64,000 nucleotides of DNA from Pseudomonas sp. N3-W (GTDB taxonomy: Bacteria > Pseudomonadota > Gammaproteobacteria > Pseudomonadales > Pseudomonadaceae), in NCBI RefSeq assembly GCF_024970185.1, contig NZ_CP103965.1, positions 4,026,001-4,090,000 on the forward strand, read 5' to 3'. A program made the translations under genes and the position numbers. Positions 5,860-7,872 of the stretch are shown here, one piece after another (position 1 is the first letter of the stretch; each line of letters starts with the position of its first letter). The notes beneath the pieces were generated by a model. That model was not told the DNA's origin. It saw only the letters and a program-made list of their open reading frames with translations, and ran no database searches.

Positions 5860-6350
5860 ATGGCCTCTTCGCGGGCAAGCCCGCTCCCACAGTGGACCGC
5901 GTTCATCTGAACCACCCCGTCTACCGTGGGAGCGGGCTTGCCCGCGAAGGCGTCGGAACATTCAACGCAAAACCTGAACGATTGATAGCCCCCACAGTGG
6001 ACCGCGTTCATCTGAACCACCCGGTCTACTGTGGGAGCGGGCTTGCCCGCGAAGGCGTCGGAACATTCAACGCAAAACCTGAACGATTGATATCCCCCAC
6101 AGTGGACCGCGTTCATCTGAACCACCCGGTCTACTGTGGGAGCGGGCCTGCCCGCGAAGGCGTCGGAACATTCAACGCAAAACCTGACAATTGATATCCC
6201 CCACAGTGGACCGCGTTCATCTGAACCACCCGGTCTACTGTGGGAGCGGCCTTGCCCGCGAAGGCGTCGGAACAGTCAGCGCAAAACCTGACAATTGATA
6301 TCCCCCACAGTGGACCGCGTTCATCTGAACCACCCGTCTACTGTGGGAGC
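5860..6350. repeat. Tandem REP array, left part
   Basis: About five copies of a ~106-bp unit. Each has a REP core (GTGGGAGCGGGCTTGCCCGC) followed by GCGTCGGAACATTCAACGC, AACCTGAACGATTGATA and CAGTGGACCGCGTTCATC. The array lies between convergent genes. It stops abruptly after GTGGGAGC, in the middle of a REP core, where the IS110 element begins. The continuation is on the other side of the element. Confidence 0.9.
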
Positions 6351-6373
6351 AACTGTCTTGCCCCTACCATTCG

Positions 6374-7291
6374 TCACCGCCATTCGGTGCCGTCTCGCAG
6401 CATGGCATTCAGCCTGATCAGCAGTATCCGCATGCAGGCGATGAGCGCGACTTTCGCGCTCTTGCCTCTCTCCCGTAGAGCCTCATAGCGCGCCTTGAAA
6501 TCTGCCTGATGGCGGATCACGACCCAGCAGGACATGTAGAGAGCACGTCTAACTCGGGCTCTTCCTCCGAAGATCTGACGTTTTCCGCTGTGATTGCCGC
6601 TGTCGTCATTGTAGGGTGCGATTCCCGCCAGGGCCGCAATCTCCCGGCGATCAAGCTCACCGAGCTCGGGCAAGTAAACCAGCAAACTGGCAGTAGCCAC
6701 CGTGCCGATGCCTTTAACAGAAATCAGCCGCTCGGCTTTTTCTGCATCCAGGTCGCGCATGCTTTGATTGATGGCTTTCTCGAGCTGCTTGATCTGCGTT
6801 TGCAGATAACGAATATGTTCTTTGATCGCTGTGATTGCAGTTGGCAACTGAGCCTGCTGAAGCCTGCGTTTGTTATCGTCCCGCTGCTGGACAAAGTGCT
6901 CGCGCAGTTGAACCAGCTCGCGCAGGGCTTCACGTTCAGGCGAAATGACTTTGTCACGAGACGCGTGCAGGACTTCGGCGAAATCAGCCAGAACAGCCGC
7001 GTCGATGGGGTCGGTCTTGGCATTCTTGCCCATTGCTACAGCGAAGGCCCTGGCCCGACGAGGATTGATCCTGAGCACGTTGAAGTTCGCGTCTTGCAAT
7101 GCCGCCATGACCCTTCGTTCATAGCCACCAGTGGCTTCCAGCAATACCCGACCGACCTCGTAACAACTCAAATGCTCGATCAGTTCAACAAAGCCTTGCG
7201 AAGTGTTTGAAACGTCGAAGCCTTCGTTCTGTGGCTGAACCCAGACAACGAGGTTTGTTTTAGAGATATCGATGCCGACCCAGGAAATCAT
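6374..7291 (-). CDS. IS110-family transposase (DEDD recombinase)
   Basis: 305 residues, full length for the family. The N-terminal RuvC-like domain shows the DEDD residues Asp8 (GIDISK), Glu52 (LLEATGGYE), Asp94 and Asp97 (KTDPIDAAVLADF). A coiled coil covers about residues 120-185. The C-terminal Tnp domain has LISVKGIGTVATASLL, LAGIAPYNDDSGNHSGKR, and GGRARVRRALYM; the Ser of DSG (residue 231) is the likely nucleophile. The frame appears intact. IS110 recombinases work with a bridge RNA encoded in the element, and one is visible in the leader just upstream. Confidence 0.95.
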   Translation of the reverse strand: MISWVGIDISKTNLVVWVQPQNEGFDVSNTSQGFVELIEHLSCYEVGRVLLEATGGYERRVMAALQDANFNVLRINPRRARAFAVAMGKNAKTDPIDAAVLADFAEVLHASRDKVISPEREALRELVQLREHFVQQRDDNKRRLQQAQLPTAITAIKEHIRYLQTQIKQLEKAINQSMRDLDAEKAERLISVKGIGTVATASLLVYLPELGELDRREIAALAGIAPYNDDSGNHSGKRQIFGGRARVRRALYMSCWVVIRHQADFKARYEALRERGKSAKVALIACMRILLIRLNAMLRDGTEWR

Positions 7292-7324
7292 GGCAAAACC
7301 CTCTTACACTCATGAGTGAGAGCG

Positions 7325-7462
7325 CTCTGGCTTTGCCCACGCTTGTGATTCGAGTGGCGCTCGTCCAACTGTTCGGGCTTATGGGCCAGAGTGGAAAGGT
7401 GGATGGCAGCTTTGCTCCCACTCGTGCTTTAAGCACCGCGGACTCACAGCTTGCCATCCACC
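7325..7462 (-). ncRNA. Predicted IS110 bridge RNA (structured core)
   Basis: Read on the minus strand, the transposase leader forms two stem-loops. The target loop is closed by GGTGGATGGCAAGCT (7448-7462) and AGCTGCCATCCACC (7398-7411). It has an inner hairpin GTGCTTAAAGCAC, a 5' guide AGTCCGC (7438-7444) and a 3' guide GTGGGAGC (7414-7421). The guides match the REP target AAGCCCGC/GCTCCCAC with one G-U wobble. The donor loop is closed by CTCTGGC/GCCAGAG (7385-7391, 7325-7331). It has an inner hairpin CGAGCGCCACTCG, a 5' guide ACAGTTG (7366-7372) and a 3' guide CACAAGC (7341-7347), matching the joined element ends ACAGTT-GC-TTGTG. Folding and pairing were done by eye; the RNA ends are not known. 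Confidence 0.85.
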
Positions 7463-7500
7463 CCTCTCACTTCAGAGTTTATCCCCTGATCTAGACACAA

Positions 7501-7866
7501 GCGGGCTTGCCCGCGAAGGCGTCGGAACAGTCAGCGCAAAACCTGAACGATTGATAGCCCCCACAGTGGACCGCGTTCATCTGAACCACCCGGTCTACTG
7601 TGGGAGCGGGCTTGCCCGCGAAGGCGTCGGAACATTCAACGCAAAACCTGAACGATTGATAGCCCCCACAGTGGACCGCGTTCATCTGAACCACCCGGTC
7701 TACTGTGGGAGCGGGCTTGCCCGCGAAGGCGTCGGAACAGTCAGCGCAAAACCTGAACGATTGATAGCCCCCACAGTGGACCGCGTTCATCTGAACCACC
7801 CGGTCTACCGTGGGAGCGGGCTTGCCCGCGAAGGCGTCGGAACAGTCAGCGCAAAACCTGAACGAT
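7501..7866. repeat. Tandem REP array, right part
   Basis: Continuation of the ~106-bp unit array after the IS. It starts inside a REP core (GCGGGCTTGCCCGCGAAGG) and contains three further full inter-REP segments with CAGTGGACCGCGTTCATC. It runs to within a few bases of the stop codon of the LTA-synthase-like gene. Confidence 0.9.
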
Positions 7867-7872
7867 TGATAT

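What the first reader, a model, noticed from the sequence alone, without database searches (positions are those of the whole stretch)
7325..7500. Predicted bridge RNA of an IS110 element is programmed to recognise REP palindromes
Seen directly: in the transposase leader (minus strand) two stem-loops can be drawn, each with an inner hairpin flanked by guide strands. The first loop carries AGTCCGC and GTGGGAGC, which match the two halves of the interrupted REP (AAGCCCGC and GCTCCCAC) around the core GC; only one U-G wobble is needed. The second carries ACAGTTG and CACAAGC, which match the joined element ends (ACAGTT-GC-TTGTG). Known: IS110 recombinases use a bridge RNA with a target-binding and a donor-binding loop with this guide order. 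Inference: the RNA makes REP elements the programmed landing site, explaining why such elements sit in REPs.
Basis: partly seen in the sequence, partly recalled or inferred. Interest (0 to 1): 0.92.

Follow-up and report, generated by a model that had tools for sequence, protein, structure and literature searches.

The report
RNA-guided jumping gene targeting REP repeats
A small mobile DNA element in a Pseudomonas genome carries an RNA whose guide bases match the repeated palindromes in which its copies sit; it is a clear new example of a recently described mechanism rather than a new kind of system.

Summary
The minus-strand leader of an IS110-group element (window 6350-7501) folds into two guide loops: the first matches both halves of the interrupted REP, the second the joined element ends. 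Six of six copies in the host genome sit in AAGCCCG|CT|CCCAC; 351 intact copies of that 14-mer exist (reversed control 0). Over 80 insertions with 12 guide types, own guides fit own targets better than shuffled ones (3 of 100,000 shuffles as good). In six of seven distant relatives the right guide fits eight or nine bases of a target that is often unrelated. Stems keep pairing through compensatory changes (0 of 500 shuffles). Correction: the core is CT, as in IS621, not GC. Added: the rejoined ends form a promoter-like TTGnnn-17-TAnnnT before the RNA. Against: one host carries a guide mismatch in three of three copies; five of 12 guide types fit some other type's targets better; a blind column scan did not single out the guide; no RNA or recombination was measured. 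Precedent is direct: IS621 targets REPs, and a predicted ISPpu10 bridge RNA with target is in print. Verdict: supported; new member of a known kind. Side result: Rfam sX15 matches the antisense strand of this RNA.

The parts
6350..7501 (-). Whole IS110-group element, 1,152 bp counted with one copy of the CT core (AG on the + strand at 7500-7501, repeated at 6348-6349)
   Evidence: Junctions read; rejoining the flanks gives a stretch found exactly, over 111 bases, at 7698 in the same array; 6 copies in the genome
6374..7291 (-). Recombinase (tnp), 305 aa, RuvC-like DEDD domain and C-terminal serine motif
   Evidence: Pfam PF01548 3.2e-24 and PF02371 1.2e-16; NCBIfam NF033542 'IS110 family RNA-guided transposase' 215.5 bits, cut-off 140; PDB relatives ISCro4 2.1e-32 and IS621 3.6e-30; GID, EAT, KTD-IDA and DSG motifs present in all 22 sequences aligned, this one included (which residues are catalytic is recalled and inferred from the motifs)
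7316..7470 (-). Predicted bridge RNA body: outer stem closing target loop and donor loop
   Evidence: Folds; consensus of 23 leaders with pair counts and controls
7398..7463 (-). Target-binding loop with its stem
7438..7444 (-). [quoted passage not shown]
7414..7421 (-). Right target guide GTGGGAGC, pairs with the top strand GCTCCCAC (G at position 7, core CT, then CCCAC)
7325..7391 (-). Donor-binding loop with its stem
7366..7372 (-). Left donor guide ACAGTTG, equal to the last 7 bases of the right end (6356-6350)
7341..7347 (-). Right donor guide CACAAGC, reverse complement of GCTTGTG at the left end
7476..7481 (-). -10-like hexamer TAAACT; with TTGCTT formed across the rejoined ends at a 17-base spacing it makes a promoter-like site before the RNA body (inference)
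   Evidence: One TAnnnT at exactly 17 bases in 80 of 80 rows (31 distinct leaders; the TTG itself was part of the pattern that selected the rows); the plain scan of the integrated sequence finds no promoter
7315..7476 (+). Antisense strand of the bridge RNA: match to Rfam sX15 (RF02234)
   Evidence: E 1.3e-8, 59.3 bits, gathering score 55; over the cut-off in 6 of 6 genome copies
6336..6349 (.). Right remnant of the interrupted REP: on the minus strand core CT, then CCCACAGTAGAC
7500..7520 (.). Left remnant of the interrupted REP: on the minus strand GCCTTCGCGGGCAAGCCCG, then core CT

Best explanation
An IS110-group insertion sequence moves by bridge-RNA-guided recombination and is programmed for the host's REP palindromes. 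Step 1 (inferred): excision joins the ends into a circle, ACAGTTG-CT-TGTG. Step 2 (inferred): the joined ends create a promoter (TTGCTT, 17 bases, TAAACT) that transcribes the RNA. Step 3 (known for IS621; here supported by structure and covariation): the recombinase binds the RNA, whose second loop pairs with the joined ends and first loop with the REP, left guide on the bottom strand and right guide on the top strand. Step 4 (known for IS621): strands are exchanged at the CT core, leaving CT at both junctions. Step 5 (shown as outcome): copies lie at one fixed point and in one orientation relative to the REP.
For: Recombinase family. Long upstream and short downstream non-coding ends, 208 and 24 bp. 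Fold; 98.3% of pair cells kept against 96.1% in shuffles and 35-53% when partners are slid, 11 pairs changed on both sides against 3.6. 6 of 6 own copies in the exact 14-mer, of which 351 intact copies exist. In the own genome 434 sites carry AAGCTCGCTCCCAC, which the left guide would meet with a mismatch; none of the 6 own copies, and none of the 31 insertions with guide GAGTCCGC in all hosts, is of that kind (its abundance in the other hosts was not counted). Guide-target fit over 12 guide types 14.07 of 16 against 12.75 for shuffles, 3 of 100,000 as good. Natural reprogramming: G018 guide CCATTCGC with 6 of 6 targets ending ATTCGC, one of them (L163) without a palindromic left half; L045 (one copy) changed in both halves and matched in both; five G363 copies with right guide GTAGGAGC in GCTCCTAC. 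Position 7: guide-target G-G 71, C-C 6, G-C 3. Distant relatives: right guide fits 8.5-9 of 9 at the expected place in 6 of 7.
Against: G165 has guide G opposite target C at position 7 in 3 of 3 copies. For 5 of 12 guide types the targets of at least one other type score higher than their own. L048 fits only 4 of 8 on the left. Left-guide positions -8, -9 and -2 pair in only about half of the guide types. A blind scan of all leader columns against all target columns did not put the guide columns first. One of five measures of the stem control is not above shuffles (further pair types 25 against 25.3). L095 does not fit at the expected place. The right-half test alone is weaker (730 of 100,000). 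No transcript, protein-RNA binding or transposition was measured.
Confidence: 0.95

Rival explanations
1. The recombinase protein itself, or the cruciform shape of REPs, picks the site; the leader is only a folded regulatory 5' untranslated region, as first described for ISPpu9.
For: The ISPpu9 leader controls translation and has an antisense RNA (PMC8450116, passages read); the close relatives share both the protein family and REP-like targets.
Against: Guides change with targets; L163 lies at a left half that is not palindromic but still matches its guide; four distant relatives with the same RNA anatomy match targets unlike REPs. A regulatory role in addition is not excluded.
Confidence: 0.03
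2. The match between leader and REP is chance or a leftover of REP sequence captured by the element.
For: REP-like words are common in this genome; one further 8-mer of the leader fits the left half equally well.
Against: 5 of 20,000 resampled leaders show both matches in order; the same positions match across 12 guide types; a captured REP would carry both halves on one strand in REP order, whereas the right guide is of the opposite sense and set apart by a hairpin.
Confidence: 0.01
3. Copies reached REPs by homologous recombination between repeats after one original insertion.
For: The REP array around this copy is a near-identical 105-bp tandem repeat; L004 and L005 have similar flanks on both sides and may not be independent.
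Against: The other four own copies have different flanks beyond the REP; both junctions share CT in 80 of 80 rows from many hosts; distant relatives match targets unlike REPs.
Confidence: 0.01

Closest known systems
IS621 (E. coli) and its bridge RNA
   Same: IS110 group, RuvC DEDD plus serine recombinase, RNA in the left end, target loop then donor loop, same guide strands, CT core, insertion into REPs (PMC11208160 and PMC11208158, passages read; REP targeting by IS621 also in PMC1525189)
   Different: Different REP sequence; the right guide reads 5 bases beyond the core (IS621 2, by the positions; longer ones are reported in orthologues); recombinase only distantly similar (108.7 bits)
ISPpu10 (Pseudomonas putida)
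   Same: IS110 element with 7 of 7 copies in REPs (PMC1525189, table); a predicted bridge RNA with guides, target and donor is shown in Extended Data Fig. 10 of PMC11208160 (legend read; figure not held)
   Different: Its sequence was not obtained here, so identity to this element is not tested
ISPpu9 (P. putida KT2440) with Asr9 and Ssr9
   Same: IS110-type, 7 copies in REPs, long folded leader, antisense RNA over the leader (PMC8450116, passages; 7 of 7)
   Different: AG direct repeat as written there, which is CT on the other strand; some copies carry ssr9 downstream, for which the 24-bp right end here has no room
seekRNA of IS1111 and IS110 types (ISPa11, ISEc21)
   Same: RNA of the long non-coding region guides target choice; ISPa11 targets REPs of P. 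aeruginosa (PMC11187229, passages)
   Different: ISPa11 is of the IS1111 type, with its RNA downstream of tnp and subterminal inverted repeats
Rfam sX15 (RF02234)
   Same: Matches this leader over its full model length
   Different: Defined on the opposite strand; the Xanthomonadaceae origin is from the Rfam line; its original paper could not be opened

Membership tests
IS110 family, IS110 group | Recombinase with PF01548 and PF02371, DEDD and conserved serine | tested here: met
   motifs
IS110 family, IS110 group | Long left non-coding end, short right end, RNA in the left end | tested here: met
   208 bp and 24 bp; RNA in the left end
IS110 family, IS110 group | Circular intermediate with joined ends | not testable with these tools
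   Only inferred from the donor guides and the promoter-like spacing at rejoined ends
IS621-type bridge RNA | Target loop then donor loop, each with an inner hairpin between two guides | tested here: met
   in the consensus the inner hairpin of the target loop is predicted, that of the donor loop is not fully resolved
[quoted passage not shown]
IS621-type bridge RNA | CT core at both junctions | tested here: met
   80 of 80
IS621-type bridge RNA | Recombinase binds the RNA and recombines only with it | not testable with these tools
   Needs an experiment
REP-targeting IS110 elements (ISPpu9, ISPpu10) | All copies at one fixed point in REPs | tested here: met
   6 of 6 in the own genome
ISPpu10 proper | High sequence identity to ISPpu10 | not tested
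   Sequence not obtained; protein database search failed
IS1111 group | RNA downstream of tnp in a long right end | tested here: not met
   Right end 24 bp, RNA upstream; subterminal inverted repeats were not searched for
TIGR-Tas | NCBIfam NF052498 over its cut-off | tested here: not met
   32.2 bits, cut-off 100

The most novel reading that the evidence does not exclude
The leader is read on both strands across this whole class: the sense strand makes the bridge RNA, from a promoter that exists only after circularisation, and the antisense strand makes a stable sX15/Asr9-type RNA that covers both guide loops and so acts as an anti-guide, controlling when the element can be aimed. sX15 in Xanthomonas and Asr9 in P. 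putida would then be the same regulator, so far seen as a free-standing or purely translational small RNA.
Probability: 0.3. Interest if true: 0.55.

Novelty: new member of a known kind. Interest (0 to 1): 0.33.

Why it matters
It gives an independent natural test of bridge-RNA targeting within one genus: guide bases change together with the target, and discrimination among hundreds of near-identical REP sites can be counted in one genome. It ties REP occupancy by a Pseudomonas IS110 element to an RNA guide, corrects the core to CT, and suggests that an existing Rfam family describes the strand opposite to this RNA class.

Tried and rejected
IS1111-type and TIGR-Tas readings were rejected (membership table). 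Protein-only or palindrome-only recognition was rejected as the main cause because guides covary with targets. A blind column-by-column covariation scan over 22 of the 23 aligned leaders did not single out the guides and is a negative result. The idea that each guide follows an abundant REP of its host was not upheld for L045: the intact 16-mer of its target occurs once in its genome and in none of six others. A plasmid search with the L100 leader found nothing. A query meant to count REP variants in five genomes ended in N, which the tool ignores, and gave only counts of GCTCCYACA. The mir-1451 match is below its gathering score and covers two facing REPs. The first junction filter was wrong and dropped 87 of 88 rows; one search used a corrected filter but mis-registered L005 by one base; one search corrects that. 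Gap rules that I set: one extra base before the hairpin for a guide ending CAG (among the rows used, L048), and one extra G at the right end for G018 and G363 (11 rows). Identity of the joined flanks over about 155 bases without gaps was spoilt, by keeping the core twice and, by a one-base indel in the array; the exact match replaces both.

Full report
WHAT IS THERE. Window 6350-7501 holds a 1,152-bp insertion sequence on the minus strand, inside one REP of a 105-bp tandem array (5886-6350 and 7500-7871). Rejoining the flanks with one core gives a stretch found exactly elsewhere in the array over 111 bases. The gene at 7291-6374 encodes a 305-residue recombinase: PF01548 and PF02371, NCBIfam 'IS110 family RNA-guided transposase' over its cut-off, solved relatives ISCro4 and IS621, and the D, E, D, D and serine motifs in all 22 sequences aligned, itself included. 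Upstream lie 208 non-coding bases, downstream 24, the layout of the IS110 group. The host genome, 6.67 Mb, is taken to be a Pseudomonas because its genus-mate G316 carries the same locus as a named Pseudomonas record. It has six copies of leader plus gene and no further leader at E 0.001.

THE RNA. The leader folds far better than shuffles (z -6.3, 0 of 200) into an outer stem enclosing a target loop (7463-7398) and a donor loop (7391-7325). I chose 24 representative leaders, left out one with N, and aligned 23. Of 48 predicted pairs 11 have at least one sequence changed on both sides with the pair kept. Controls: 98.3% of cells paired against 96.1% shuffled (0 of 500), 11 against 3.6 two-sided pairs (0 of 500), 35-53% of cells paired when partners are slid; the number of further pair types is not above shuffles (25 against 25.3). 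The structure came from these sequences, which favours it against the slid versions.

GUIDES AND TARGET. Left guide 7444-7438, right guide 7421-7414, donor guides 7372-7366 and 7347-7341. Both target matches in order occur in 5 of 20,000 Markov resamples. All six own copies lie in AAGCCCG-CT-CCCAC. Intact copies of this 14-mer: 351, reversed control 0. Sites within two mismatches, exact ones included: 1,698, control 70. The variant AAGCTCGCTCCCAC: 434. If insertion did not distinguish these sites, six of six in the exact form would have a chance of about 1 in 10,000 (hand arithmetic); L004 and L005 have similar flanks and may count as one event, which weakens this to about 4 in 10,000.

COVARIATION. 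From 170 loci, many being the same place fetched more than once, a pattern requiring TTGTGTC at the left end, the inner hairpin and GACAGTTG at the right end gave 88 rows. Nine were dropped: seven for left flanks of 4-5 bases at contig ends, one with N, one wrong boundary. L005, missed for a base change in its hairpin, was added: 80 insertions, 31 distinct leaders, 12 guide types. At most five matches per genome were scored in the genus searches, so copy numbers are lower bounds. Copies within one genome are not independent, so the test is on guide types, which are themselves related: own fit 14.07 of 16, shuffled mean 12.75, 3 of 100,000 as good; left half alone 9, right half alone 730 of 100,000; without L048, 1 of 100,000. 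For 7 of 12 types the own targets are the best or tied best; for 5 some other type's targets score higher. Clear cases: G018, guide CCATTCGC, six of six targets ending ATTCGC, one of them (L163) without a palindromic left half; L045, both halves changed and both matched; G363, right guide GTAGGAGC in GCTCCTAC, five of five. The G018 and G363 guides differ in both halves although their recombinases are 74% identical. At position 7 guide and target read G-G 71, C-C 6, G-C 3; the three exceptions are the three copies of genome G165. Right-guide positions 1-8 pair in nearly all types (position 1 is fixed by the row pattern), left positions -7 to -3 in nearly all, -8, -9 and -2 in about half. A blind scan over all columns did not rank the guide columns first.

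DISTANT RELATIVES. Of 369 genomes of the class, 8 including the own one have a relative at E 1e-50 or better. Seven distant elements (L089-L095, 37-44% identity) keep the RNA layout by eye. I located their right ends by eye from the donor-guide motif, so donor matches there are by construction; the right-target match is not. Together with four of the Pseudomonas elements the fit is 8.32 of 9 against 7.01 shuffled, 0 of 100,000. Six of the seven fit at 8.5-9 right behind the hairpin; L095 reaches 7 elsewhere. Of the six, two have targets that begin GCTCCC as REPs do, four do not.

CORE AND PROMOTER. Both junctions share CT in 80 of 80 rows; GC is shared in 71. The core is therefore CT, which PMC11208158 calls highly conserved in IS621 and related orthologues (passage). 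Rejoined ends give TTGnnn, 17 bases, TAnnnT in 80 of 80: 69 as TTGCTT, and 11 as TTGGCT, where an extra G at the right end makes up for a left end one base shorter. The TTG was part of the row pattern; the TAnnnT and its distance were not. In the integrated state the plain scan finds no promoter. The start expected from the -10 hexamer lies at the first bases of the outer stem. PMC11208160 speaks of a natural sigma-70 promoter in the joined ends of IS621 whose -35 box is lost on trimming them (passage), so this too has a precedent.

ANTISENSE. Rfam sX15 matches the opposite strand of the leader over its full model, and of all six copies. The only other genome with a match among 321 gave L100 (120 bits at 1501-1662), which lies just upstream of and antisense to an IS110 recombinase fragment (1463-1071, minus). 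Asr9 of ISPpu9 is an abundant, stable RNA antisense to its leader, and its overproduction raised transposition (PMC8450116). A model of one strand will match any homologous leader, so the Rfam match shows homology, not transcription. A TAnnnT stands before the expected antisense start in 22 of 23 leaders, but this overlaps the presumed ribosome-binding region and may be kept for that.

NOVELTY. REP insertion by IS621, ISPpu9, ISPpu10 and ISPa11 is in PMC1525189 (abstract and passages); large-scale guide-target covariation and a predicted ISPpu10 bridge RNA are in PMC11208160 (passages and legend); seekRNA targeting including ISPa11 is in PMC11187229 (passages). Of the paper searches only three were answered: bridge RNA with IS110 and REP, REP with IS110 and Pseudomonas, sX15 (it led to one paper, PMC6337395, seen only for a table entry naming sX15); I claim no absence from print. 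The element is a new member of a known kind, unusually well supported; what may be new is the within-genus record of guide and target changing together and the identity of sX15.

Noticed in passing
window 7315-7476 (+); L100 1501-1662 (+): Rfam family sX15 (RF02234) matches the antisense strand of IS110-type bridge RNA leaders, here and in a distant genome where it abuts an IS110 recombinase fragment; its annotation may need revision.
   Followed up: partly
window 5886-6350 and 7500-7871: Tandem array of a 105-bp unit with one full REP and part of a facing one per unit (by eye), split by the element.
   Followed up: partly
L091, L092, L094: Three distant IS110 relatives sit at CTTGTTA-type sites that by eye and recall look like integron attC sites, with right guides that match.
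   Followed up: partly
ISPpu9 literature (PMC8450116): Ssr9 is on the tnp strand, about 180 nt, partly complementary to Asr9, and occurs as orphan copies flanked by the element's end boxes; it may be a second, separately mobile bridge RNA rather than only a sponge. Inference from the passages, no sequence examined.
   Followed up: no
G018 (L044, L083-L086, L163) and G363 (L047, L087, L164-L166): One extra G at the right end and a left end one base shorter keep the promoter-like spacing at 17; the donor guide then seems out of step with the core by one base (by eye), which I cannot explain.
   Followed up: partly
L164, L165, L166: Three G363 copies match the recombinase only over residues 132-309, with an open frame of 177 aa and one TAG in the matched stretch, yet keep ends and guides; they may move only in trans.
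   Followed up: no
L100: The recombinase gene beside the sX15 match is only a fragment (residues 6-134); by eye another insertion sequence follows.
   Followed up: no
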